Origin: Sarcomyxa edulis
Lineage: Eukaryota; Basidiomycota; Agaricomycetes; Agaricales; Mycenaceae
Assembly (NCBI GenBank): GCA_009761415.1
Contig: QUOL01000032.1
Span: forward strand, 51,121 to 115,120
Reading direction: 5' to 3'
DNA length: 64,000 bases
The stretch's first letter is position 1, and every line of letters begins with the position of its first letter. Under the pieces are notes generated by a model. The model searched no databases, was not told the DNA's origin, and saw only the letters and a program-made list of their open reading frames with translations. The translations under genes and the position numbers were made by a program. This document shows, one piece after another, positions 12,947-55,469 of this stretch.

Positions 12947-15217
12947 CTAAAAATCTTTAGCTCTACCTTTACCCTTGATATCGCGGGATGGTTTATTATC
13001 TAAAGATGTGTTAGATTGTGAGTCTCTTGTAGAAGAATTAGTACTATTTGAACTACCATCCGATGTAGGAGTATTTAAGTTTTGTGTACTATCAGAAGAA
13101 GGGCTACTTGAGTCTGGGGAAGCTGAATCTACCACAACCCATTCAGAAGATGTTATTGATTCAGAGCTGTTACTGTTGCTATTTTCGGAACTGTTTTCGT
13201 TTGATAAATGTGGAGCTGTTTCAGTCTCTGGTAATGTGTTAGCTACTATATTATCTCCTGTCGCGAGATCCAAATTATTAGCAACCGGGCTTACGTGGTT
13301 TAGATTGCTCGGTCCAGCAACAGCATTATTAGTGTTATTTTGAACATAATTACTTGGGCCAGCAATAGCATTATTATTTTGTGCATAATTACTTGGGCCA
13401 GCTACAGCATTATTATTATTGTTATTTTGGGGAGACATAAAAATAGAATTGCTTGTGCCGGATTCTGCGTGATTATTTTCAGTATTAGTTGTAGTCGCTT
13501 GATTACTACTATTAGCTGGGTAACTTGAACCTGAAACTAAATTATTACTATTATCAAGATTTAACTTGGGTAATGGTTTAACAACAGGATTTTTGGATGC
13601 TTGAATTCCGTCTCTAACAGATTCATATTCCTCGTTAGTTAGCGTTTTAACTCTAGATAATTTTGATTCTTTAGCTCAAAACTCTTCCGCTTGAAACTCT
13701 TTATCTACAAGATTAGTAGAATAATCTGAGCCTGGAATATAAAATTCAGCTTTTCGAGCCGGTTTTTCAGGTACTTCAGTTGTTGTATCTACAAGATCTG
13801 TAGAATCATCGGAATCTGAGATAAAAAATTTATTTTTTTTTTTTGATTCATCTGATACATTAGAAGAGCTTGTATCTGAAATTTGCGTATTAGTAGAACT
13901 ATCAGAAAGACTAGAGTTAGAGTCTACTGAAGAAACACTGCTTGAACCAATAGAAGATTGACCAGATTCTATTGAAGACACACTGCTAACAGAACCCATA
14001 GAAGAAATGCTATTTGTAGAATCAATTGAAGAAAGACTACTTATAGAATCAAGTGAAGAAATACTACTTAAAGAACCCATTGAAGAAATGCTGCTTGTAG
14101 AATTACTTGCAGGGATACTGCTGATATTATTATTTTCAGATGTATTTGTAGAAGTTTCTTCAGGAGAAATACTTGTAAGGTTATTGTCTATAGCATTTGA
14201 AGAATTATTTGGTATATTAGGTTGGTCTTGTGTTGTTTGCATTCTTTCTCTAATTGCTGCAAATTCATCGTTTGTAAGAGCTCTAACTCTAGGAATACTT
14301 GCCCCAGTAGAAACATTGTTATCTTCAACAACAGCAGGTTCTGTACGAGCCTGAACAGGTGCTTGAGAGCCTGCATTTTGATTTGCTACATTTGCTACAT
14401 TTGCTACCGGAGTATTTCCATTTGTGGCCGAATCTGACCCCTCAACATTTTGGGCTGGTGTACTGTCTGAAGTTTGTGTATTCATATTTTCTCCTGAGTC
14501 GGAGCCTCCATTTTGTGAAGTTGAATTATTAGATTCAGAATTACCGTTACCACCTAAATTAACAGGGTTTGTTTCAGGTCGGTTTTGCTCGCCTGAAGGT
14601 CCAGCAACTGGTCCTGGGGTTGGTTGTGAAGATCCAGGTCTTGGTTCTTCGTCATCATCCTCGGTATCCGCTAAATAACCAGGGTCATCGGATGGAACGT
14701 TTGGGGTAGGTTCTTCGGATGGAACGGTGGGGATAGGTTCTGATTCATCGTCCGCCAAATATCCTGGATCCTCATTTAGAGAAAGACCTATAGTTAGTGT
14801 ATTCGAATTGGTATTAAAGATAAGATCTACAATTACACCATAAACTTCTCCTGGATTGAAAGAGAATTTTAGCCACTCATACCATCCCATATTTATATCA
14901 GTAAACATGTGGAAATAATACATGAAATTAATATTTCAAAGAGATTGGAAAAAAATTCATGAATCATTAAAGCTAATAACACTATAATTACTAATAAATA
15001 AATAAAGCATATTACTTAAAATAAAATAATTAAATATATTTTTTATATAACTTAAATTAGAATTAAAAATATATGCTAATTTGCTACTATATTTCATTTT
15101 CATTAAAATTAATAATAATAACAATGAAACCGTTACTATAAATAAAACAATCTTAAAATTATCCCCCATAATTAAAGCAATAATACCTGAAATAATATTA
15201 ATCAATAAATTATTCAC
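12947..15217 (-). CDS. Hypothetical membrane protein with Ser/Asn/Pro-rich tail
   Basis: A single uninterrupted frame once TGA is read as Trp; function not recognised. The N-terminal 90 or so residues are hydrophobic with about two to three membrane segments (INIISGIIALI, LFIVTVSLLLLLILM, FILSNMLYLFISNY). A more ordinary stretch follows (WYEWLKFSFNPGEVYGVIVD). About 450 residues of low complexity come next: Pro/Glu/Asp-rich with a duplicated DPGYLAD, then Ser-rich SSISS repeats, then Asn-rich GPSN repeats (AVAGPSNY, AIAGPSNY), ending GKGRAKDF. The start is uncertain: GTG at 15217, or ATG at 15169 (740 residues). The frame stays open up to 15841, overlapping the end of nad1 in the -1 frame. 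It directly follows nad1 on the same strand. It could be a free gene or a -1 frameshift extension of nad1. Confidence 0.6.
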
Positions 15218-15492
15218 ATAAAATATAAAAATAAAAGACTCTATAAATTGTTTTAATCTTAGAGTGTTATACGCATTACCAAAATATTTAAGTAAGGAAG
15301 CGTATAGCCCTGATATTAGCCCAGGTTTTTTATTATTCTTTTTATTATTATTATTATTATTATTCTTATTATTAGTATTATTATTATTATATGAACCACC
15401 ATTTACTGGTTGAGATAACTCTTGTAATTGAGAATTATTCTTAGAAGTATTAGTGTTAGCAGAATTTGAGGAATTTACTGTAAAGTTAGAAT

Positions 15493-17922
15493 TTAAAATG
15501 TTGATATTGCCATATCAAATATAACTATTAAAGATGGGATTAAAATAATAAAAGCTATAGATATTGGTAATAATTGATTTCAACATAGAGAAATTAGTTG
15601 ATCGTAACGTAAACGGGGTAAAGTAGCTCGTACTAATACAAATAATGAAGCTATTAAACCAGATTTTAATCCAAGTACAAAGTAAGGTGAGTAAGGGAAT
15701 AATATTAGCATTATTTTTAGACCCAAACCCACCAAGGCTAAGAACAAACCCAAAAAAAGTTGCAAAAGCGATTGCAAAAAAAATGTTAAAAAAGTTAGCC
15801 CCAGGAATTGCATAAAAAGATCCAAAAAATAGTTGCTTCAAATTAATAAAGATGATTGTGAGTAGGCAACTAGAGCATACTCTAATTGCGTTACCAAAAA
15901 ATGCAAAACATCTTGTAAAGCTAAAAAAGAAGTAAAATTGTACCCCCCGAAGAAAAGAGTAACTGTTACAGTACTGTACAAAAGTATTGAAGAATATTCA
16001 GCCAAAAAAAAGTATACAAAAAGATGTGAACTGTGTTCAGTGAAGTAACCCGCTACTAATTCAGATTCCAAGAATTAATTAAAATAAAAAAATTTATTTA
16101 GCCTTCCCCAGTCGTACTAAGTCATGAATGACCAACCAAGGGTTGAAAAAATTCAGATTTAATTTCTTTAATGTAAAATTTACCTTTAAAAAGTTTACCT
16201 TATTTAATATCCCTAGAAATAGTAGTTTTATGAACATTAAATTTAATTGCTAATTTTACTTGATTAGAGTATTTTTCAATTAAATTATTGTTTTAATCAT
16301 ATAACCCTAAAGGTCTAATACTTTTTTTAATTGACATTAATTTTTTAGTATTTTCATTATGGGTTTTACCAAACATAGGATTTAATTTTCCAGGTTTACT
16401 TATTAAACTTAAAATAGATTCACTTTTTTTACCAAACATAGGATGATTACTCTTGTTTGCAAATCTTAATTTCATTTTTTCTATTGCTTGTTTTGTGTGT
16501 TTGTAACCTAACATTGAATTTCCCTCTTTTTGAAAATTATATAAAAAAGAAAAAGGAAAAGCAGAGATAACTGTTGTTTCAATATCAGTTAGCAATACAG
16601 CAGGATCATTATGGAAATAATATATAACTACCTTAAATAAATTTAGTTCTTGATTTAATTTAAATCAAAACAAAGGTCCATCTTTATGAATAGATCTTTG
16701 TAATCTTAAGTTTGAATCTCTTCCTTTAATATGATCCATTAATCTCGAATATAGATCTAAACTAGAACCAATATATTGTTTAGAAGTTTTAGTATTTATT
16801 ATACCATAAACACCTGCTTTCTTTTTTAATTCTTTTCTTAACAAGTTAGTATTAGAAAGATCATTATAAGTTATTAAAGGTTTAACAGGTACAACGTTAA
16901 ACTGAAGAATACTAAATAATTATAAAAAATTTAAATTTTCGCATTGAGAGTTATCATTGAAAATTAGGTAAATAATAAACAGCAAAATAAATAATATTTT
17001 AAGTACAAACCATAACCTTTCAGTTATAGCTGGACTATATCATATTTCCTTAGTTAATAAAGAAATGATCGCGTATTGCCTCTTAGGTAACATTTCTTGT
17101 ATTGCTTAATACAATTTGTTTTCCTGCTGATTATCCATTGTTACATACTTTAAATTTTTACTATTGGGTATAAAAATAAATAGTATTCAAGTCTTTAGGA
17201 GTTTCCAGCATATAGCTATCTTTATAGAGGCCAAATCTTTTTTAATAGTAGTGTTTCTTAGCCTCTTGTAAATCAAAAGGAGTCCGAGCAGTTTCAGCTA
17301 ATATAGCAATAAAAAAAATTAAACTTAAAGGCAATAAAGGTATAAAAGCCAAAACAGCCAGTTGATTTTCAACAATTAATGTATAATTTAAAGCACCGTT
17401 TATAACTACAACTACAAGAATTATTGAACTTAGTAGTAATTCATAAGATACTACAGCAGCAGTAGATCTTAGAGATCCTAAAAAAGCATATTTTGAATTA
17501 GCAGCTCAACCAGCAAATAAAACACCATAAAATCCTAAAGAAGAGATTGCCAATGTATATAAAACACTTAAAGATAATTCAGCAATAGCTAGACCGTCCC
17601 CAAAAGGAATAGCAGCTCAACCTAATAAACTGCAAATAAGAGTAATAATTGGAGCTACATAGAACATTATTTTATTTGAATGAGCAGGTACTATATTTTC
17701 CTTAAGAATTAATTTAACAGCATCGGCAAATGGTTGTAATGTACCTAATAAACCTGTGGTATTAGGACCCACTCGACGTTGATGTGCTGCTAATTGTTTA
17801 CGTTCCAGTATAGTTAAAAAGGCTACAGCTAATAGGATAGGTAAAATCACGCAAAGTATAGTAATTAAAGGGAAAACTAAAGAATTTAAAGATCCGATAA
17901 ATGAGTAGAAAAGATTTGTCAT
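15493..17922 (-). CDS. nad1: NADH dehydrogenase subunit 1 (two exons)
   Basis: Membrane subunit of complex I that forms part of the quinone-binding channel. Exon 1 is 17922-17260 (221 codons) and exon 2 is 16068-15493 (191 codons plus stop), giving 412 residues. Conserved segments: [50 protein letters not shown] at the exon 1 end, [14 protein letters not shown] at the exon 2 start, and [16 protein letters not shown] near the C-terminus. The splice falls between DLQEA and ESELV, with T before and G at the intron end. Several Trp are coded by TGA. The protein is longer than the usual 330-370 residues because of a Leu/Phe-rich insertion of about 50 residues before the VRATLPR motif. The 3' end overlaps an open -1 frame leading into the downstream ORF. 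Confidence 0.93.
16069..17259 (-). mobile_element. Group I intron in nad1
   Basis: Interrupts nad1 after the codon for Ala in DLQEA. Core motifs read on the minus strand: P at about 17206-17222 (ATATGCTGGAAACTCC), Q at about 17130-17145 (AATCAGCAGGAAAAC), and S at about 17028-17040 (GATATAGTCC). The 3' end G is opposite 16069. It carries a GIY-YIG endonuclease gene downstream of the core. Confidence 0.85.
16200..16919 (-). CDS. GIY-YIG homing endonuclease in the nad1 intron
   Basis: Intron-encoded endonuclease expected to nick or cleave intronless nad1 and so spread its host intron. GIY motif: [19 protein letters not shown] at about residues 25-45, with the catalytic-type Arg in [12 protein letters not shown] and a Glu in the IETTVISAF helix. 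The C-terminal half holds DNA-binding modules of the NUMOD3 type ([29 protein letters not shown]) and an end resembling a helix-turn-helix ([18 protein letters not shown]). The frame is intact for 240 codons, but no ATG precedes the GIY motif; the frame opens after a TAA at 16920-16922, so a non-ATG start (TTA or ATT) is implied. It looks functional, unlike most other endonuclease genes here. Confidence 0.85.
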
Positions 17923-36825: not shown

Positions 36826-39800
36826 TTATTTAATAAAATTTTGTGCCATTAAAACAGTAATACAGAAAGATCCTCTACCAACTTTATTAGTAAATCTAGC
36901 TGAATCTCTAAAGTTTATTTTACCTGGAGAGAATGATCCCATTTGAGCAGATCTAACAGTTTTTTTAGGAACTATTCTTTCTAAATATAATCTTCCTGCT
37001 ACTCTGATTTTTAATCCTACAATTGCACTATCATAAGAAACTCTATCTTCAGGAATCAAGGCATGATTTTCGATTTTTTTTTTATTTCGATCCATATATA
37101 GTTGTTTTCTAATGATTAATTTTTGTCTTTTTCTCCAATGAGTTCTATTAATATATTTACTCATATAACTAACTAATATATTAACTTCATCAGTTGGTTT
37201 ACGTAATCTTATTAAATCAAATTCAATTGATTTTTTAAAAAAAAGATTTAAAACTCTACATAAATTTTTTAAATTTTTATTATACACTTCAACAAAAGCA
37301 TTCATTCTTTCTTCTTCTGTAACATTTTTAAATAATTTAAGCAATATTTTAGTTCTTTTGCTTTTTTTAGGTGGTTTTTTATAAAATGTTGTTTTTAGGT
37401 TTTGAATTCGTAGATCAGACTTTAATCATGTGTCTAATAACTTTCTTCTTCAATTTTCCATAGCTAAAAAAGGGAAATAATAAAAAAATTGTATTATAAT
37501 TTTGTCTGGTCCTATAAGGAAAGTAGGTTTACTAATAAAACAGAACATACTTCTAAATGCTGATGCTAATAAAGAATAAGATTTTTTAATTAATTTATTT
37601 GTTTCTGGGTTAAAATTAAAACTAATAAATTTATATGAATAATATCTGTGATTTTTATTTTCATTAAAATTAATATCTTTTAAGTATTTATTTATTGTTG
37701 GTGTAATAAAAAAAGTTTGATTATTGTTTTTTGCCCTTGCCTCAACCTGATTCAGGGCAGAGGTAGCTTGAATTTCTGCAATATTTGTATAATTTTTTCT
37801 TATTTTTTTATCTTCTTTTTTATCATAAATATTTAACGTTTTATTAATAGATACTTCTGTGGGTTTTACAGGTATTAATTCATTTTTAAAAAAGAACTCA
37901 TAATTTTTATAACCATTTTCGATTTTATAGACAGCTTGCCAGATGTCAACAATGTTTTGTTTATATCCCTTACTATTACTTATTAAAGGAACCTCTGATT
38001 TTAAAACCGCCGTCTTATTAAATTTATCAGTATCAGTATTGCTTTCTTTATTAATATTAGTATTAATATTTATATTTTTATTTGTATTAACTTCTTTTTG
38101 TGTTTGTTCTTTTGTTTGTTTTTGTTCTTCGTACGAACCCCGGGTACTTATCGAACCAAAGGGAACAACAGCAAATTTATTAGATAAGTGTATAAAAAGT
38201 TTTTTTTGTATATTTTGAATTGCTATTAATAATTGACTGTTAGTTGTTGGTGTAATTTGTTGTTTTTTAGATACATTTTTATTAATATTTGTTTTTTTAA
38301 TTAATTCAATAATTTTAAGGGCTGCGGATTTGATATTTAAATATTCTTCATTAAATTTTTTATTTTCACGCTTTAATCATATTTTGTTTAATTGATTTAT
38401 AATTAATTTATGTAATAGTAATTTATTGTTTGTTTTTTGTTTGTTAGTATTGTTTAAAATAATAAATGAGTTAGTTCCATTTTTAAGTTCTTTGACTATA
38501 TTTATTTCTTTTCTAAGACTAAATGCTTTAAATTTTAATATTTGGGATAAATCAATATTTTTAACATTAGTTAAAAAAAGTTGAAGAGGTTTATTTTTTA
38601 AAATAAGAGCCATTTGATTATTTCTTTTTATACTCAAAATAGATTTCTTAACATATTTTTTTATTGTTTTATTTAATTTAGAAGATACATTGCTTTTTAG
38701 ATTGCTTTTAATAGCTTTATTTCCCTTTTTATTTTGTTTGTTTTTTTTAATTTGTTGAGTACCCAAAATTGCAATTATAGCAGCTTTAGCTTTTTTATTT
38801 TTTTTTTTTATATTATTTATTACAACAACTTTTTTTTCTGGTTGGATTTTATTTAGGCGTTGTGTGGGAAGCTCATTAGGATTTTTTTTTTTAAAAACAA
38901 GTAAATCAGGCGTGTTTGTTTTACCTTCTTCTAGTGGTTTCAGGAGATATTTGCTAAGCAGTTCTTTATTTTTAAGCAAGTCAGGGCTAGTATCAGGTTT
39001 AAAATTTTTAGTATTTTTTTTACTAGATTTTGAATTTTTTTTAGCCACGTGGATTCCAATATCTTTAGACAATACAGGGTCCTTTTTTAAAACTGAAGAA
39101 GTGTTTATAGATGATGTACTTGATTTTGCCGGAGTTGTAGTATCATTAGTAGTATTAGTTAAAAAAGGAGGGAAAGGAGCGTTTGTAGAATATTTAGCTG
39201 ATTTTATTTTATTCTTTTTTGTTTTTATTTTAGATCCTTGAGTAGTTAATAGAAAAGGAAGTGGTAATTTATTTAAACAAAGGTTAGATTTGTTTTTAGA
39301 TATAGACGCAGAGGTACAACTAGTTGCCTTACTTTTGTCCTTAAAATTGGCTGAGGGAATAGAATTAGGATTTTGGATATAGTTTTTAGATATATTTTTT
39401 TTAACTATAAGGATTTGTTGTTTTTGTTCTGCAGACCCTATAGCTATTTGACCAGGATGTTCAAGTTTTTCTGTTTCTTTTGTTACCCCTAAGCTGAAAT
39501 TTTTTAATTGCGCCCTAGCCTCAACCTGACTATGCCTCAACTCTGAGGCAAGGCAAAGGCTCAGGGCAGAGGCAGGGACATAAGTAGAAGCAGATTTTAA
39601 GGCTTTTAAAAGATTAATAAGTTGTTCTTTGGTTTTAATTACTTTAGTAGGTCCAGTATAAATGGATCATAAATTGTATGAAACTCCAAAAATTTTTAAA
39701 GTTGCTTCTTTTTTGTTATTTTCTTGTTCAACTGTTGTAAGGCTATGAGTTTGTTTTTCAACCTTTTTTGTTTCTAAACTATTTTTAAATAAATTAGGTT

Positions 39801-40683
39801 TATGTACTAAATTTTCTATTTTTCGATAAATTTCAGGAGTTATAAAAAGTATCGGTGTTGTATCTTTTAAAGAAGGCATTAATTTATTTATTAATTCAAA
39901 TGGCATAATTATCGTAAATGTAGATTTATTTAAATTATTTTGTATTAGAACTTTTTGTAATTTGTAGATTAAACTATTATTTTTGTTGTTTTTCGGACCA
40001 ACCTTAATAATTTTGTTTTTTTTTGCTACTGATTTTAAGTGGCTAAATAAAGATGTTCTATTTTGTGAAGTTGTGCCATTGGCAATTCCTTTTCCCATAT
40101 TATCATATCTTAACTTATTTATTAAAATTAGTGTATTTAAATTACTATGATCTATTCCTACCATATTAACTGAAAATGAAGCATCTTTATTTAAATCTTG
40201 TGCTTTAACAATTCTATGTGCAAATCAATTGGCTGTACTTAGTTTATTTAATCTATATTGTATATATGGAAATCTTTTATTATAAAAATCTGATAAATCT
40301 TTTAATACTTTTAAATTTTGTTGGTTAAAGCTATAAGGTCTTTTTATTTTAGCTATATCTTGGCTGCCTTCAACTAAAGAGTTTATTTCACCTTTGGGTC
40401 TAGATCTGTTTTCTTTTGTTGTTACTATTGCTTTTGCTGTTGCTGTTTCTAAACCAAGAGAAGATTTATTAATTTGTTTTAGCATATTAACATAAGTAAT
40501 AATATGGTCTGAAAGGTTATAAGTTTTTCTTTTTAAAATAAGGTTTCTCAGTTTATTATTTTCTTCCCCTCTTAATGTAACTTCAATAATATTATCGTCT
40601 AACGCATCTATTTTATTTTGCATAGCTTTTTGAAATTTAGACAGCATATTATATTTTATTTGATTAAGACTAATATTTTTCAT
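36826..40683 (-). CDS. rps3: Ribosomal protein S3, greatly enlarged
   Basis: Small-subunit ribosomal protein uS3, free-standing. With TGA as Trp the frame is open for 1285 residues; usual fungal mitochondrial S3 proteins are a few hundred. The C-terminal 170 residues carry the family signature: VGLKIRVAGRLYLERIVPKK, TVRSAQMGSFSPGKINFRDS, ARFTNKVGRGSFCITV. The N-terminal 200 or so residues also look ordered (FQKAMQNKIDALDDNIIEVT, HIITYVNMLKQINKSSLG, NKRFPYIQYRLNKLSTANWF). Between them lie hundreds of Lys/Asn-rich residues. Three dispersed GC-rich repeats are embedded in frame: at about 38125-38168 (coding VVPFGSISTRGSYEEQ), 37732-37763 (coding SALNQVEARAK) and 39511-39578 (coding VPASALSLCLASELRHSQVE). 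ATG at 40681-40683. No intron signals were found. Confidence 0.85.
37732..37763. repeat. Family 2 repeat inserted in frame in rps3
   Basis: GCCCTTGCCTCAACCTGATT followed by CAGGGCAGAGG; CCCTTGCCTC/GAGGCAAGGG-type partners occur elsewhere. The coding strand gives SALNQVEARAK without breaking the rps3 frame. Confidence 0.75.
39511..39578. repeat. Double family 2 repeat inserted in frame in rps3
   Basis: Two modules in tandem, CGCCCTAGCCTCAACCTGAC and GCCTCAACTCTGAGGCAAGG, then CTCAGGGCAGAGGCAGGG. The rps3 frame stays open across the block. Confidence 0.75.
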
Positions 40684-41447
40684 ATTTTTTGGGTTTGTTA
40701 TATTTTTTTCCCCATCCTCGTAATCGAAAAGATATTTAATCTTTATTTGTTTATTATTTATATAAACGGTTTTAATAAAAAAAAAAAATTTTTTTTTTAT
40801 TTATCTATCAAGGGTGCTGGGGATTTTATGAAATTTATTTCAATTTCATACATAGAATAGTGACTAATTGGAGCAAGTTTTTTTTAATTAATCCTTTTTT
40901 ACTTTTTTTTTAATTTATAAGTATAAAAAAAATAAGTGATTAAATACGATTTGCACTTATATTAGTTAAAATATGCTTATTTATATAAGCAAAAACAAAC
41001 TCCAAATAGTGAAATCACATTTTTTAAACAAAACGATTAAATCAAATGGTATACATACGTTCCATAAATAGTTGATTTAATTTATATTTTTTAAGTCTTC
41101 TTTGGTATAATTTAAAAAGAAAAAAAAACATTCCTTTCTTACGGTTTTTCTTATTAGTTTGTCTAAGTGATGGTTAGTTATACGGCCAACGAAAGGATAA
41201 AACAAATATGTTTGCTTTTGTTTTGATAAATTTTTTATATAAGGATACTAATCTTATAATAATGTGAAGTAAATTTTAATTAATAAAAAAATGTAAATTA
41301 ATAATTTATATTAATAAGTTATAATAAAAAAAAAATTAATTTAGACGAATTATCTAAAGAATAAGGAAGCTAAGAATCAAAACATTCTTTCTATTTTATT
41401 TATAAGTATTTTTATTAACAATAGATAATTTTTCATTAAAGTCTCTT
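40684..41447. other. Spacer between nad4 extension and rps3
   Basis: A/T-rich. No gene, tRNA or repeat copy could be supported. It separates the end of the nad4 reading frame from the rps3 start, and presumably includes untranslated sequence of both. Confidence 0.5.
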
Positions 41448-44400
41448 TTAAGAGTTATCATCCCCGGTTTTTTTGTTTAAATCAATTGGGCTCTTTAAAT
41501 TAGAATTTAACTCTTTTTCTTGAGCTACATCCTTTTGCTTATTTATAGAATCAATAATTTCTTGTTCTTCAAAAACAGATAACGTTTTATTGTAAGGTAT
41601 CAAACTAGGAAAGGTAGGAAAATTAGATGTAGTTGGTAAAGGTTTATTCATTAGGAAAGGTTTATTTCTAAAGAATGCTTGAGAATTTAATTGAGAAATT
41701 CTTTCATTTTTTTGTATGAAATTTAAATTTGTTTCTATTCAATGATCAACTTCTTTTTGATTTAGTTTGTTAGAAGCAGTTATTTGTGAAGACAAAAAAG
41801 TTATTAAAGGATCATTAGGTTCTATTGCCTTATTATAAAGTTTATTTTCAATATATTTTTTTTTTTCTATTAAACTAAGATCTTGAAAACTATTAAAAGT
41901 AAATAAAGGTAAGTTTTTTTCAGTTGCTATCGTATCCTGAGTATTATTTATATCAGAATTAGCTGGGGCTCTTTCAATCTCATGCTGTGGGCTAAAGAGG
42001 CTAGAAAGTACTGATTTATTCTTTTTACTGTTATCAGATAGCACAGCGCTTATCTCTTTTTTTTTTGTCCCTATAGCCTCACTGTTAAATTCTAGATCCC
42101 TTGGTGTATGTGACCGGGTCTCTTGTTCTCCTAATTCACGTAAATTATTGTTATCGCTAACTAAAAAAGGAGTTTGAGCTTGATTTGTAGAAATAGAAGA
42201 AGAAGGATAAATACCAATATCAGTTTCTCTGTTATTTCTGTTACTGTTGTTGCAGATTCTACGGATCAGTATATTGTCTCTTGAGTTACTAGGTATTTCA
42301 TTATTATTGTCTCTTGAGTTACTAGGTATTTCATTATTATTATAAACATGATTATTATTATTATTATTTTTATTATATATTTGGTTATTGCCTTTAGGAT
42401 TAGTATGTTCTTGTAATTGCAGAGGTCCCTGAACTCACCTATTCAATTCTTCAACTTCTGCGCCTGCTCCTAGGTAAGAATGCCAAGAAAAAAAATATAG
42501 GTTAAAGTAATTAAATCCGGATTTAATAAATTCTTTACAGCTTTTGATTAAATTAATAATGGAAAATTTTACCAATTTATCGTTATTTTTTTCGTTTAAT
42601 ATAAATATTTTTTTTAAGTTACCGTAAAGGTTTTCTTGTTGCGCTTGCGGTACGCAATTAATTTGTATTTTAATCTCTTTTTTTGGCATTTCCAAGGTGT
42701 GTTCTTTGTTTTGATTTAGATTAAAACAAGAACCTCTGCCCTGAACCTCTGCCCTAACGCTTGAGGCAAGGGTCAGGTTGAGGCAAGGGTGATGTGGTTT
42801 ATTATTGCCAAATATTTTTTCCCCTTTTTGTTCGATAAACCTCGGGAACGAAGACAAAGTCATTTTAAGGCTAGAAACAAAACTAGCTGGTAGCCCAAGA
42901 GAGTACGTAAAAAAAATAAGTTGCAGTGAGGGCAGCCCAAATATTATTGCCAGCCAAACCTCTGCCTTAAGAAAGCAAAACAAATTCATTGCGTTCCACC
43001 AAAAATATAAACCTACTCCAGCTAGACTCGTGTTAAAAAATATTACTTTTAATACATAAATATAACTAAAATTAAACCGCTTAAATATAAAATTAAAAGA
43101 TTTCTTCAAAATAATGTTATCTAAAAGCACCAATTCTTTTTTTCTTAAAATGGTTAATCTTTGTTTAAAAGCTAAATTAAGGTACTCAAAAGCGGAGGCA
43201 TTCATTTTTACATATACTTTTTTTACCCAATTGTATATATATTTAATGCAAGATTTTACACATATATTTAAAAATTTATATATTTTAACAAAACCACAGG
43301 AAACAGAACCATTTACCTTTGGCTTTCTTGCTAAATAAAAAGAAACAAAAAAGTTAAAAAAAGGAAAAGAATAAACCTTAACAAAAATAGTGTTTAAAAA
43401 GGTATAAAGACATTTAACTTTTGTTCGCATAAACAAAAAGTAAAAAAAATGTATTAAAACGAGGCATAAAATAAATATTCAAAAACTAATAATAGGAAAA
43501 GAGTAAATAAAGTTAAATATAAAGCTAATGAATTTAAATAAAACTAACAAAAATAAGCCTAATTTATATAATTTAAAAAAGAATAAGCAAAAAAAAACAA
43601 AAGTTAAAGATATTAGCATAAAAATATAAATTTTGTTGTATGTGGCAACAATTAATAAATTAAATTTATTTAAGTAACCCCTCTGATTTTTTTTTAAACT
43701 GCAGGAAGTAGGGTAAGGCTTAAAAATAAAAATAAGGTGAAAAGATAAAAAAAGACCACAGATAAAATCCCAAGTATTGTGAAAATAGTGTAGTAATTTA
43801 GACAAGAGATATTGGCCTGTAGGTAAAAAAACCAAGTTTATTAAAAAATCTATTACTGCGATTAGGGCTCCGCAGAGAAGGCTCAAGAGGTTTAAATCGA
43901 AAAGCATACTTAACCTAAAAAAACTACTACAACTACAACTACAACTACAACAAAAAGCTTTGACTGTTTGTTTTTTAAACCGGGCATTGAAATGTTCTGT
44001 TAAAGGCTCTAAAAATGAGCTGGCTCTAGTAATAGGAATAGTTCGGAATGATTTAGCTGCTGAAATAATACTAGAAAAAAATGAACCTACTACTAATTTA
44101 CCAGAATCATAAACTAAAATTTGTGGTTTTTGTTTTTTGTTCTTTGGGTTCTTCCAAAGGGCAGATTTAGTCACTGTCTTAGTATTAAAAAAAAAAATTA
44201 GACTTGAAATAACTACCCAGAGAGATGAATTATCAATAGTTTCTACAGGTAGATTGTCAAAAGTTATTAAGGGGTTAATATTATTATATAATAAAGAAGT
44301 AACTGACATGTGAAGACTATCTAAAATTAAATTAGGAAAGATACCAAAACCTATTGCGGGTATTAATAAAGTAATTAATAAAACAAATTCTCTTCTATTT

Positions 44401-47171
44401 ATATCTTTCAATTGTTTTAAATGAGGTGAATAACTACCATAAGAGGTTCTGTTATAAAGTCAAATTGAGTAAATAGCTGATAAAACAATTCCTGAAGCTC
44501 CTAATACTGCTATAAATGGATTTCTTTCTCAAATTCCAATAAGCGATAATTGCTCACCTAAAAAATTTAATGATAAAGGAATCCCGGTGTTGAATAGTGT
44601 AAAGATAAAGAATAAAATAGTTGAAACAGGCATGAATGTAGCTAAACCTCGAATATAGGGTATAACTCTGGTTCCTGTTCGATCGTAAATTATTCCACCT
44701 ACTATTATAAATAAACCGCCCGAAGACAACGCGTGTGCTATAGCCAAAAGAATAGCCCCTTCAATTCCTTGTATAGTGTTAGAGAATAAACCTAAAACAA
44801 CTATACCCATGTGACTGATACTACTATAAGCAATCAATCTTTTAGTATCTTGTTGGATAATTGTAGATAAACTAGCAAATATTATAGCAATAACAGCAAC
44901 TGTTTGTATTAAAGGATTAAAATAATTAGAGGCATCAGGTAAAAAATTTATTAAAACTCTAAGATAACCATACGTAGCCAACTTAAGAATCGTGGCAGCT
45001 AGTATAATAGAACCAGCTAAAGGTGAATCAGCATGTGCTTTAGGTAATCAAATAATAAAAGGATAAAGAGGGGTTTTTACAGCAAAAGCAAAAAAGAACC
45101 CTAATCATAATAATTTTTGACTACTTAAACTAATTTCATATAGAGAAATTAATTGATAATTCGTAGAACCTACAAAACTGTATATGACTAAAATACAAAG
45201 TAGCATAGGTAAACTTCCTGCTAAAGTATATAGAAAAAATAATAAAGCAGATCTAAATCTATCTCGACCATGTCCAAACACTACAATTACTATAAACAAC
45301 ACAGGCAAGACCACGGCTAAAAAAAAAATTTTTCATTTTTTTAACAGCTTTATCATACAAAAAATTATACATTTCGTTATTTGTTTTATTTCCGTTGCTC
45401 CTGCACCTACGGATTTCTAACTAGACCATTAAACTCTTCCACTATTATACCTTAATTAATTATTCTGATTTGATTTATCAAAAAAAACACAAGGAAAACC
45501 GGAAGTAGCAAGATGAGCTTTTTTATTCATTAAGTTAGCAAGCAACTTTAGAAAAATCTTTAAAATTTAATAGTTTTATTTCTTGGTTAGAGTATTTTCT
45601 TTTTCCTTTTTTTTTGTTTTATTTTCTTAATATCCATTTGAAAGCTTCCTTCTCCCGAACCGTACCGAATCAACCTACTCCCTTTAACGTTTTATTTTGT
45701 AATACATTCTAGAATGAAAATGAGGCTTTACTACTTCTCTCAATAGAGGCATAGAACGTTCTCTAGTGTATATTCAATATAATTTTTTTTCCACGTATTG
45801 TAACTCTAATCTATATTTAATTGTAAGTACATTAATTAATCGGACAATATCTATTATTGAATAAGAATCAGTACATATAATTAGGCCATGTCTATGAAAA
45901 GAACAACCTCCCAAAATAATGTTTGCTAAAGCTATAGGAGTTAAAAGTTAATAAATATTATGGGGAACTTTCTATTTTTAGTAAAGAATGCTAAAACCAG
46001 AATTTAGATTTCCAGCTCTAGTACGAGTAGTAACATGAGGGTTGCTACCACAATAGTGAGATAAGATGTAAAATATAAATAAAACATAACTTGCTTTAGC
46101 TAGCGATTGTTTAAACCCTAACCGGGCATTTTCACTAGTTTTAGAGGAGAAAGTAATCCATCCGTCAGATAAGAGCAATCCAATTACACATTCTTTTTTT
46201 TTTATTTACAATTAGCTAGTTTTACCATTGCTAACTGAGTTCGATTAAATTTAATACTACTGTAGATAATAAATTTGAACCAAATACTACTAAAGATTTT
46301 GATTAGGTAAAACCAGTTATTTTTGATTAGGTAAAACCAGTTATAAATCAAGGATCTAATTTTTGCAAAGGCTATCGCATAGCACAAAATAATGGAGAAG
46401 AATTTTAGAAATAAAAAAAAAGGCAAGTAAAGATTTGTATATTAATTTGGTTAGAAGGGTTGCTGATTTGATAATTGCTTTCACAACCCATTAGAGTACA
46501 CCTTAACTTATTATGTTTAAATAAGTAACTACCGTCTACTCGTTGCTCTTTTACAAATTAAATATTTTCTATTAAATCTGATTTAGATCCGCGATTGCCC
46601 ATTTCATTTTCAGTCATCTTAGGACTTGTTACCTTACCTGAGTGATTAGTTCAGCCACTTATAATCTTTCAATCATAGCTTGGTATCCTTAGCTTTAGGG
46701 TATCCCCGGAGTTTGGCAGTTTAAAGCATATAATGAGATCCCAACTCATTTAGCACTTTCAAAGAAAACATAAAAAAATAATAAATCTAAAGAAACAAAA
46801 GCAAATATTTGTAAAGTCTCTAATAATAGGAAACAAATAATAAAAGATTTTATATTTTGGATTGTGTTTTTATGATTTGAAAGTAAAGCAATTGGAGTAA
46901 TAAAGGTAGTTAATAAAACAAAGTAAAGAGATAATCCATCAATACCTAAATTAAAATGCCAAGAGTTCATTTGATTTATTTCATAAATGAATTGATATTG
47001 TACAGAATTAGCATCAAATTGAATTCATAAAAAAAAAGATACAACTAAATTTATTAATGAAGTAATTAGAGCAATTTTTTTAATTATTAATTGATTGTTA
47101 ATAGAGTTTTCTTTAATAGGCAATATTAAGATACAACCAATAATAGGTATAGCTAATAATAATTGAAGCAT
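41448..47171 (-). CDS. nad4: NADH dehydrogenase subunit 4 with a giant C-terminal extension
   Basis: Proton-pumping membrane subunit of complex I. Exon 1 is 47171-46755 (139 codons: MLQLLLAIPIIGCILILPIK, MNSWHFNLGIDGLSLYFVLL, to FFES). Exon 2 is 45311-41448 (1287 codons plus stop). Nad4 homology: VLPVLFIVIVVFGHGRDRFR, KLATYGYLRVLINFLPDASN, YSSISHMGIVVLGLFSNTIQ, IALAHALSSGGLFIIVGG-type region, FPNLILDSLHMSVTSLLY. Homology ends at about residue 480 (near 44300), the usual length. The frame nevertheless continues for about 950 residues to 41448: a membrane-rich part, a Phe/Lys-rich part with a family 2 repeat (42731-42790), and an Asn-rich, charged tail with a duplicated NNNEIPSNSRD. Only TGA (Trp) codons interrupt it. 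Either a fused ORF or a true extension. Confidence 0.88.
42731..42790. repeat. Family 2 repeat inserted in frame in the nad4 extension
   Basis: ACCTCTGCCCTGAACCTCTG, CCCTAACGCTTGAGGCAAGG, GTCAGGTTGAGGCAAGGG. GAGGCAAGGG/CCCTTGCCTC-type complementarity allows a hairpin. It encodes CLNLTLASSVRAEVQGRGS within the open frame. Confidence 0.75.
45312..46754 (-). mobile_element. Group I intron of nad4
   Basis: 1443 nt, between FFES and VLPVL, T before and G at the end. Core of the same type as cob intron 4: AACTGCCAAACTCCGGGGAT at about 46706-46727, GGGCAATCGCGGATC at about 46588-46603, CGAGTAGACGGTAG at about 46526-46540. It carries a degraded LAGLIDADG gene. Confidence 0.85.
45870..46210 (-). pseudogene. 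Degraded LAGLIDADG endonuclease in the nad4 intron
   Basis: First motif VIGLLLSDGWITFSSKTSEN at about 46125-46190, then ARLGFKQSLAKASYVLFIFY, ILSHYCGSNPHVTTRTRAGN and LNSGFSILY. After stops and a frame change come LLTPIALANIILGGCSFHRH and GLIICTDSYS, corresponding to the usual second-motif region 'LTPIALAxWIMGDG...GLxLCTDSF' with the catalytic MGDG lost. The remaining C-terminal part is missing. Confidence 0.65.
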
Positions 47172-53615: not shown

Positions 53616-54998
53616 TTAATCTATATCATCCATTAAATCAGTTTTGATTTTTTTTATTTTTGGATCTAGATTGTATGCTTTGACCCATTCTCGGTAAAGA
53701 CGAGATTCTGTTGGAATTTTACTTTGGTTAATCAATTTGCTAGTTAAAATATGTTTTGAGGTACTAGGATCACCGGGTACAAGAGGATCTATTTCGAATC
53801 TATGTATTATTTGAATAGCAGCACGCACTCCAAGTTCAGTTTCGAGGAAAGGTTTCTGGTCCCCATTTGGATTATAGTAAGAGGGTACAGGTACTTTCAG
53901 TCTTATTAAAGACCCGCTATCCGCAAGATATTCTAATATGTTATCCTTTCGTAAAAACCCATTTTCATTAAATAATGAAACAGATACTTTTTTAATCTCG
54001 GATTCATTAGAAAATTTAACTTTAGTAGAGTATACTTCTCCTTGATAAGATTCAAAGAGATCAGTCTTTGCTAAACCGTTTTCATTTTTAAATAAATTGG
54101 GTGCTGTGTTTCTTTTTAATATTGACTTTTCGATTTTAAAATCGGTAGGATTATAAATATTAGTTCATATACCTGCGTCTTTATCTTTAGGATCTAAACC
54201 AAAATGTCTTAGTGGCTCAGCTGAAGGAATAAAAACTTGGATTTTGTTACCTTGGCGTATAGAAGTTAACAGATGGTAATGACCTGATGTAGTTTTATCC
54301 AATACCAGAAATAAACCTCGACATTTTGAATCATTTCTATTTTTAATATAAAGAGAATCTTCAGGGTCAGGCTGTTTTATTACAATATTAGCTCCTTCTT
54401 TCAAAGTTTGTTTTACTTTGTCGAAAGACCACAGATCATGAATTAGAGCGACTCGTTCTAGCCCGAGAAAAAAGACTAATTTATCTGTTACTTTTGTTTT
54501 TATTATTTGATAGTAACGAACATCATAGATAAGTTTAGCATTGTCAGAATTTACAAGATTTTTAAACTTTTGCAGAATACGTTGGTGCAACTCAATAGCT
54601 TGGGAGGATTCTACAATAATGCGTTGAACATTATAATCTACTGGTTTAGACTCATTTGGACCTTGCATCACGTTTAAATTTTCCCTTGTACTAAATTCGT
54701 ATTGATAAAAATTCTTAGAACGAAAATTTGGAAGGTTGGTAGAAAAATAAAAATTTAATCAAGCAAAAAGCCGATTCTGAGGTATAGAGCTTAGAGGATT
54801 TATTTGTTGACCTTTCCAATACGAGGATTTTGCTACAGCCAAAGAGTAATTAGTTGGAAATTTTTGATTAAGGGTTTTATTTTGAATGATGTCTATTATA
54901 TTCCCATGTGTCTTAGAATAACCTATTTTATTGAGCTCAGGAGTATCTACCAAAGTTTTAGAAGCAGAGCTATTACCGGTAATAAGACCGGGAAGAAG

Positions 54999-55042
<44 letters not shown>

Positions 55043-55054
55043 CATTATTATTAC

Positions 55055-55131
<77 letters not shown>

Positions 55132-55469
55132 ACCTCTACTAAGTTACCTTTTGGTGGGTCATTGTGTATAATATGATTTTGTTCAAAATAAATAAAAAAA
55201 TTTATTAAAAAAATATAAACTATATAAAAAAACGAAATAAATAATGTAACAAAAATAATCTTATTGGATAATAATAACAATTTATCTTCCTCTATAAAAT
55301 AATTATAATTAAAATAAAAATAGCATAAAATCCCTAAGAAAGATAACACAAAGATATAAACAAAAAGCATGTAACCTAGATCCGGCATATAAAGGATTAT
55401 ATTATTACCTGTTTTGTAAATAAACAAGCTAGCTAACATAATATAAAAACCTCTAACACAAAAATACAT
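53616..55469 (-). CDS. Hypothetical membrane protein with poly-Asn linker
   Basis: 617 residues with TGA as Trp, not recognised. The N-terminal 115 residues contain about four membrane segments (GFYIMLASLFIYK, LGYMLFVYIFVLSFLGILCY, IIFVTLFISFFYIVYIFLIN). A tract of about 45 almost pure Asn follows (GTT/ATT microsatellite at 54999-55128), then a soluble, charged domain of about 430 residues: NVQRIIVESSQAIELHQRIL, FFLGLERVALIHDLWSFDKV, GLFLVLDKTTSGHYHLLTSI, RLYREWVKAYNLDP near the end. The soluble part looks like a folded domain. It sits between nad6 and nad4L together with the next ORF. Architecture resembles the 12947 ORF (membrane N-terminus, low-complexity linker, long tail). Confidence 0.6.
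54999..55128. repeat. ATT/AAT trinucleotide microsatellite
   Basis: About 43 near-perfect ATT units, read as Asn codons AAT on the minus strand inside the 617-residue ORF. A few interruptions (GTTA, CAT) encode Ser and Asp. Confidence 0.9.

What the first reader, a model, noticed from the sequence alone, without database searches (positions are those of the whole stretch)
41448..44300. nad4 carries an in-frame extension of about 950 residues
Nad4 homology ends at the usual place (LDSLHMSVTSLLY, about residue 480), but the same frame continues to 41448 without TAA or TAG. The continuation has membrane-rich, Lys/Phe-rich and Asn-rich sections and an embedded GC-rich repeat. The total would be 1426 residues, about three times a normal Nad4. 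A chance frame of this length in such AT-rich DNA is very unlikely, so it is either a fused free-standing ORF or a protein tail that is translated and tolerated or removed. Known families give no precedent that I can name.
Basis: partly seen in the sequence, partly recalled or inferred. Interest (0 to 1): 0.75.

Follow-up and report, generated by a model that had tools for sequence, protein, structure and literature searches.

The report
Mushroom Nad4 with a giant tail
In a mushroom's mitochondrial DNA the respiratory gene nad4 runs without a stop into a 945-residue unknown reading frame; fungi are already known to fuse extra reading frames to the ends of such genes, so this is an unusually long case of a known habit rather than a new system.

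Summary
On the minus strand nad4 is complete to its usual end (44286), and the same frame stays open for 945 more codons (44285-41451; stop 41448-41450). A dinucleotide model gives about 8e-29 for that. The contig is mitochondrial DNA of an Agaricales-like fungus.

"No precedent" does not hold. Of the 120 listed Nad4 proteins of 716-2278 aa, 117 carry C-terminal tails over 100 aa, in 37 clusters at E 1e-5: homing endonucleases, but also membrane or disordered tails. Print has a doubled nad4 and "C-terminal fused extensions" (PMC8581569, PMC4019555). The 120 best-listed Nad4 proteins of 440-1400 aa end normally (largest tail 77).

Best reading: an orphan mitochondrial ORF captured in frame at the 3' end of nad4. 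The first 126 tail codons lack any ATG, yet are stop-free (P 5e-5) and show a coding signal, as if read from nad4. Nothing here shows translation, and the tail's fate is unknown. Two overlapping contigs differ by single-base indels, so the junction should be resequenced.

The parts
46766..47171 (-). nad4 exon 1 (135 codons, MLQLLLAIPIIG...DLLFFYV)
   Evidence: ORF; weak Pfam Oxidored_q5_N (E 0.0024, below cut-off); Nad4 profile positions 1-140. The exon edge is set by homology, not by a mapped splice site.
45324..46765 (-). nad4 intron, with a LAGLIDADG reading frame (about 45690-46202) that looks broken
   Evidence: tblastn of LAGLIDADG tails of other Nad4 proteins matches 45690-46202; stops in and around that stretch in the frame. 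Edges set by homology.
44286..45323 (-). nad4 exon 2, complete to the conserved C-terminus ...LDSLHMSVTSLLY
   Evidence: Pfam Proton_antipo_M, E 3e-68; Nad4 profile positions 124-482; 78-84% identical to the 120 best-listed Nad4 proteins
43908..44285 (-). tail residues 1-126: leader without any ATG
   Evidence: no stop (1 of 20,000 simulations, P 5e-5), GC-by-codon-position signal P 0.0002
43416..43913 (-). tail residues about 125-290: hydrophobic segments
   Evidence: Kyte-Doolittle segments 125-158, 210-230, 216-266 and 252-290
42891..42992 (-). tail residues about 432-465: further hydrophobic segment
   Evidence: Kyte-Doolittle
42704..42790 (.). GC-rich dispersed repeat inside the tail, with an exact 13-base tandem duplication (42730-42755)
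   Evidence: copies elsewhere on C26 and on C24
42272..42376 (.). Asn-rich coding: AAT/AAC runs and an exact 33-base (11-codon) tandem duplication
41451..42365 (-). tail residues 641-945: Asn-rich then charged, low-confidence in the model, with GC-by-codon-position signal
41448..41450 (-). first in-frame stop after nad4

Best explanation
A genuine in-frame C-terminal fusion in a fungal mitochondrial genome. An orphan ORF (hydrophobic first half, Asn-rich and charged second half) sits directly behind a complete nad4 whose stop codon is lost, so one frame of about 1426 codons results. Mechanism, inferred: ribosomes run from nad4 into the tail, which gives the tail expression without its own start. 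The Nad4 core folds into complex I as usual; the tail leaves from its C-terminal end and is either carried as an appendage or trimmed by inner-membrane proteases. Shown here: complete core, single open frame, coding-like ATG-less leader, many parallels. Not shown: transcript, translation, processing, any function.
For: Complete Nad4 core. 945 open codons against about 60 expected stops. The leader (tail 1-126) has no ATG, no stop (P 5e-5) and a coding position signal (P 0.0002), as expected if it is read from nad4. No tRNA, no Rfam match above cut-off and no intron family in a relaxed search of 41200-44500 lies between core and tail. No second nad4 C-end was found on C26, and the only other nad4 copy found in the assembly is divergent and broken, so the extended gene is most likely the working one. 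Other Nad4 proteins carry C-tails of many kinds: 117 of 120 listed, 37 clusters at E 1e-5. In print (passages): Phlebia radiata cob and nad6 'C-terminal fused extensions', Marasmius tenuissimus GHA63 nad4 'almost double in size', Shiraia bambusicola nad4 of 682 aa.
Against: Tail residues 127-430 and 431-640 show no significant GC-by-codon-position signal (P 0.43 and 0.18). Nine of 26 tail Arg codons are AGG or CGG, never used in 42 core Arg codons, so the tail may not be under the same translational selection; the VAR1/rps3 ORF also uses AGG 3 times and CGG once. Codon-usage similarity is not specific to the reading frame (0.84 in frame, 0.87 in one reverse frame). The Phlebia authors call their own extensions 'putative non-translated'. 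None of the 120 best-listed relatives of 440-1400 aa has a long tail. A GTG at tail codon 38 could serve as a separate start.
Confidence: 0.62

Rival explanations
1. Assembly error at the junction: nad4 really ends within a few codons of 44286, and the tail is a separate overlapping or adjacent ORF in another frame.
For: Both other forward frames hold stops within a few codons of the conserved end. Two mitochondrial contigs of this assembly that share 5.47 kb differ there by 14 single-base indels and no mismatch, so base-length errors are likely present. A neighbouring long orphan ORF overlaps the 3' end of nad1 out of frame (first ATG at 15586, nad1 stop at 15493-15495). A GTG at tail codon 38 could be its start.
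Against: A separate ORF would lack an ATG for 126 codons, yet that stretch is stop-free with a coding signal. Stops close by in other frames are expected in such AT-rich DNA. Nine of the 14 indels lie in the last 0.6 kb of C24, a contig end. The 945-codon frame itself is unbroken.
Confidence: 0.15
2. The frame is open, but the mRNA is cut or ends near 44286 and the tail is not translated with Nad4.
For: The Phlebia radiata authors interpret their cob and nad6 extensions as putative non-translated. Codons unused in core genes occur in the tail; the middle lacks coding periodicity.
Against: An untranslated 945-codon stretch should collect about 60 stops. No tRNA that could punctuate the transcript was found there.
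Confidence: 0.15
3. The tail is a decayed mobile element (homing endonuclease ORF) inserted in frame, as in the mORF hybrids of Glomus and Allomyces.
For: Homing-endonuclease tails on Nad4 are common: by the precomputed Pfam column 19 of the 120 listed proteins carry a LAGLIDADG or GIY-YIG domain; 18 of these 19 are among the 30 proteins printed, where by eye the motifs sit behind Nad4.
Against: No Pfam domain in the whole tail, and none above its cut-off in its two parts (one sub-threshold match, E 0.17, to a disordered-region model). No duplicated native C-terminus found on the contig.
Confidence: 0.06
4. The region is an intron or contains one, with a short last exon elsewhere.
For: nad4 has an intron upstream, and group I and II intron matches lie elsewhere on this contig.
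Against: The Nad4 core is already complete. A relaxed Rfam search of 41200-44500 gives one hit, to tmRNA, far below its cut-off, and no intron family.
Confidence: 0.02

Closest known systems
[quoted passage not shown] passages seen)
   Same: Core respiratory genes of an Agaricomycete running in frame past the conserved end
   Different: 43 aa beyond the last conserved residue for cob, a 326-aa nad6 ORF; its nad4 has 490 aa
nad4 of Marasmius tenuissimus isolate GHA63 (PMC8581569; passages seen)
   Same: nad4 almost doubled in size, without intron, in an Agaricales fungus; differs from the other isolates of the species
   Different: The nature of the extra part is not described in the passages I saw
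Nad4 with hydrophobic or low-complexity C-tails, such as P0002 (468 aa), P0013-P0015 (374-442 aa) and the 44-member cluster that includes Edenia gomezpompae Nad4 (817 aa in all)
   Same: Nad4 followed in frame by a long segment without endonuclease domain (precomputed Pfam; sequences; P0002, P0013 and P0055 rescanned)
   Different: No significant sequence similarity to this tail; shorter
Nad4-homing endonuclease fusions (e.g. P0001, P0016, Porodaedalea P0003 and P0004)
   Same: Same junction, in frame at the C-terminus
   Different: Tail is a recognisable LAGLIDADG or GIY-YIG domain
Large TM-containing ncORFs of Agaricomycete mitogenomes (Heterobasidion irregulare, PMC4201751; passages seen)
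   Same: Long orphan mitochondrial ORFs with membrane segments; the authors suggest a possible plasmid origin
   Different: Free-standing with their own ATG (required there); here joined to nad4 and without ATG for 126 codons

Membership tests
Fungal mitochondrial core gene with in-frame C-terminal fused extension | Core protein complete to its conserved end | tested here: met
Fungal mitochondrial core gene with in-frame C-terminal fused extension | Same frame continues well beyond the conserved end, beyond chance | tested here: met
Fungal mitochondrial core gene with in-frame C-terminal fused extension | Longer than the same protein in relatives | tested here: met
   115 of 120 control Nad4 proteins end within 9 aa of LLY, maximum 77
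Fungal mitochondrial core gene with in-frame C-terminal fused extension | Extension transcribed and translated | not testable with these tools
   no RNA or peptide data held
mORF / homing-endonuclease gene hybrid (Allomyces, Glomus) | Endonuclease domain in the insert | tested here: not met
mORF / homing-endonuclease gene hybrid (Allomyces, Glomus) | Native C-terminus duplicated downstream of the insert | tested here: not met
Free-standing TM ncORF of Agaricomycete mtDNA | Long orphan ORF with membrane segments | tested here: met
Free-standing TM ncORF of Agaricomycete mtDNA | Own ATG start near the 5' end of the open frame | tested here: not met
   first ATG in the tail is codon 127
Free-standing TM ncORF of Agaricomycete mtDNA | Codon usage like conserved genes | tested here: inconclusive
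   0.84 in frame, 0.87 in one reverse frame, single core genes 0.64-0.92; AGG and CGG occur in the tail and not in the core genes counted

The most novel reading that the evidence does not exclude
The 3' end of fungal nad4 is a recurrent capture site where ORFs of different origin gain expression by fusion, and the products are matured from one polyprotein. Here the tail would be a 945-residue membrane protein made only as a C-terminal part of Nad4 and released by an inner-membrane protease, or kept as a new complex I appendage.
Probability: 0.2. Interest if true: 0.7.

Novelty: new member of a known kind. Interest (0 to 1): 0.36.

Why it matters
Mitochondrial core proteins are thought to be tightly constrained, yet Nad4 proteins in the collections searched carry long C-tails of many kinds (37 clusters at E 1e-5 among 117 tails). 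This case, longer than any of those 117, asks whether complex I tolerates a tail twice the size of the subunit or whether mitochondria process polyproteins. It also warns annotators that an over-long nad4 in a fungus is not by itself a sign of error.

Tried and rejected
Tail homologues: none among about 5.8 billion proteins at E up to 10 (word-based, candidates of 520-1654 aa only, and only the 7995 sharing most words were scored), none in Pfam above cut-off, PDB sequences or viral contigs (nad4 itself also none). Apart from itself, the only tail-like DNA listed in the own assembly is the GC-rich repeat.

Conserved junction linker: by eye the first 45 residues of the tail resembled the linker of P0001 and of Macrolepiota Nad4 (P0217). 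Shuffles do not support this for the window (P 0.21 and 0.37; P0002 0.02 uncorrected; the best score over 118 linkers was reached by 12 of 40 shuffled queries). P0001 and P0217 are related to each other (score 80, 0 of 2000 shuffles).

Profile comparison of the tail with the 37 tail clusters: above probability 20 only one short hit (P0041, probability 50, 31 columns in a hydrophobic stretch); not taken as homology.

Structure prediction of the tail from its single sequence: mean pLDDT 40, 2 of 945 residues at 70 or above; too poor for a fold search, none was run.

Alternative stop usage as the cause: no dedicated test; the frames of nad4L, nad5, nad6 and nad1 on the same contig close with ordinary TAA or TAG in table 4.

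A first codon count contained a cob exon in the wrong frame; it was redone, and the core figures quoted are from there. The rps3 ORF counts (AGG 3, CGG 1) come and do not depend on that error.

Full report
What is there. The window is the last 64 kb of a 115,120-base contig (C26) of a 35.6-Mb, 40-contig assembly. Gene content, introns and TGA=Trp mark it as fungal mitochondrial DNA. Among the best-listed Nad4 proteins the named ones are about 80-82% identical (Pleurotus, Leucopaxillus, Infundibulicybe, Amanita and others); the highest, 84%, is unnamed. So the owner is an Agaricales-like mushroom; the species is not known to me. On the minus strand nad4 has exon 1 (135 codons), an intron with a LAGLIDADG frame that looks broken, and exon 2 (346 codons) ending in LDSLHMSVTSLLY at 44286. 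A profile of 120 normal-length Nad4 proteins covers both exons up to profile position 482, so the core is complete.

The tail. The frame then runs for 945 codons, 44285-41451, to a stop at 41448. In a dinucleotide model of the same DNA this has a probability of about 8e-29, and about 60 stops are expected segment by segment. The tail is a mosaic: residues 1-126 without any Met; hydrophobic segments around 125-290 and 432-465; a Lys-rich part between them; a GC-rich dispersed repeat (42704-42790, relatives elsewhere on C26 and on C24); an Asn-rich part; a charged end. GC by codon position shows coding periodicity in 1-126 and 641-945 but not in 127-430 (P 0.43) or 431-640 (P 0.18).

Is the fusion real? 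The strongest argument is the leader. If the tail were a gene of its own it would normally begin at an ATG, but none occurs before codon 127; still those 126 codons hold no stop (8.5 expected, P 5e-5, 1 of 20,000 simulations) and show a coding signal (P 0.0002). This fits reading from nad4. A GTG at codon 38 leaves a loophole. Against it stands assembly quality: contig C24 ends with 5,474 bases that match C26 9663-15132 with no mismatch but 14 single-base indels, nine of them in the last 0.6 kb of C24. Base-length errors are therefore likely somewhere in these contigs, and stops lie close by in both other frames. I keep an assembly error at 0.15.

No spare nad4 found. C24 also carries a second nad4-like sequence, 43% identical to the window's, with a stop inside and a frame change; its longer open piece matches Nad4 proteins in my set at up to 51%. 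It is broken, and its Nad4-like end is followed by a stop. The extended gene is thus the only intact nad4 that I found in the assembly, which may be incomplete.

Precedent. I asked for Nad4 proteins of 716-2278 aa: 440 at E up to 0.001, 120 listed. Of these 120, 117 carry more than 100 residues after the Nad4 end. Few have a named source (Porodaedalea, Rhizoctonia, Edenia); most are unnamed gene calls that I did not verify, and two (P0075, P0089) look to me like bacterial NuoM-NuoN fusions. The tails fall into 37 clusters at E 1e-5 by single linkage; some clusters may still be distantly related, since endonuclease tails fall into several. By the precomputed Pfam column 19 of the 120 carry LAGLIDADG or GIY-YIG domains, three (P0063, P0078, P0095) VAR1/Rps3 and four (P0038, P0047, P0071, P0077) COX2_TM. 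The largest cluster, 44 tails, includes Edenia gomezpompae Nad4 (817 aa). Some tails, such as those of P0002 and P0013-P0015, look hydrophobic or disordered by eye; P0002 and P0013 show no Pfam domain besides Nad4's own. The longest of the 117 is 631 aa; the window's tail clusters with none.

The counter-sample, the 120 best-listed of 7504 Nad4 proteins with a permitted length of 440-1400 aa, has tails of at most 9 aa in 115 of 120 and at most 77 in all. One qualification: P0001, with a 381-residue LAGLIDADG tail and 79% identity, scores 589 bits, the same as the last row, so tailed relatives begin just beyond that list. Long tails are scattered, and most near relatives lack one.

In print (passages seen, no paper read whole): Phlebia radiata cob and nad6 with C-terminal fused extensions, thought non-translated (PMC4019555); a Sclerotinia borealis atp9-like ORF without stop followed by 213 unrelated residues (PMC4162613); Glomus endonuclease ORFs in phase with atp6 and nad3, marked as expressed in mRNA (PMC3630166); Marasmius tenuissimus GHA63 nad4 almost double in size (PMC8581569); Shiraia bambusicola nad4 of 682 residues in a table (PMC4366305). 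A survey of intronic endonuclease genes reports GIY-YIG genes absent from nad4 (PMC7487136), unlike the GIY-YIG tails seen here. I found no paper that treats Nad4 C-tails as a class in eight term searches (two were for single organisms) of an open-access library; most subscription papers are missing from it.

How it most likely works. Shown: complete core, one open frame, a leader that looks read from nad4, many parallels. Inferred: loss of the nad4 stop joined it to an orphan ORF of the membrane type known as ncORFs in Agaricomycetes (PMC4201751; the same contig has further long orphan ORFs at 12950-15586, overlapping nad1 out of frame, and at 53619-55469). The joint product would leave complex I at the end of the last Nad4 helix, which from recalled complex I structures faces the intermembrane space, and be kept or trimmed there. 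Removal of an exon-fused endonuclease by proteolysis is cited in PMC7487136. Codon use gives a mixed signal: AGG and CGG make 9 of 26 tail Arg codons and 0 of 42 in the core genes counted, so a young or weakly translated tail is possible.

Verdict. A real and unusually long example of a known kind, with an unknown tail. The interest lies in the general and, as far as I could find, little-discussed fact that Nad4 takes up so many kinds of C-tail.

Noticed in passing
L017 677-3269 (contig C24): A second, divergent cox3-like (by eye) and nad4-like pair on another mitochondrial contig of the same assembly; the nad4 copy is 43% identical to the window's, holds a stop and a frame change, and its longer piece matches Nad4 proteins in my set at up to 51%. 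Possibly foreign mitochondrial DNA.
   Followed up: partly
L021 1-5474 versus contig C26 9663-15132: Two mitochondrial contigs share 5.47 kb with no mismatch but 14 single-base indels, 9 of them in the last 0.6 kb of C24: base-length errors in the assembly or two forms of the molecule.
   Followed up: partly
12950-15586: A long orphan ORF with Asn-rich, membrane and Ser/Asn-rich parts (by eye) whose first ATG (15586) lies inside the 3' end of nad1, out of frame with it.
   Followed up: partly
36829-40683: A 1285-codon ORF whose last 264 residues match VAR1/Rps3 (71.8 bits); much longer than the rps3 ORF of Phlebia radiata (444 aa). The match is missed when the whole ORF is scanned.
   Followed up: partly
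53619-55469: Orphan 617-codon ORF with, by eye, several hydrophobic segments followed by a long Asn run made of AAT-type repeats like those in the nad4 tail.
   Followed up: no
contig C26 17055-20928 (L003-L004): Broken pieces that look like a plasmid-type DNA polymerase (by eye, no family search run).
   Followed up: no
P0217 (Macrolepiota fuliginosa Nad4): A 56-residue C-tail related to the linker of the LAGLIDADG-fused Nad4 P0001: looks like the stump of a lost endonuclease fusion.
   Followed up: partly
P0038, P0047, P0071, P0077: Nad4 proteins that carry a COX2_TM Pfam match in the precomputed column: it seems fragments of another core gene are fused behind Nad4.
   Followed up: no
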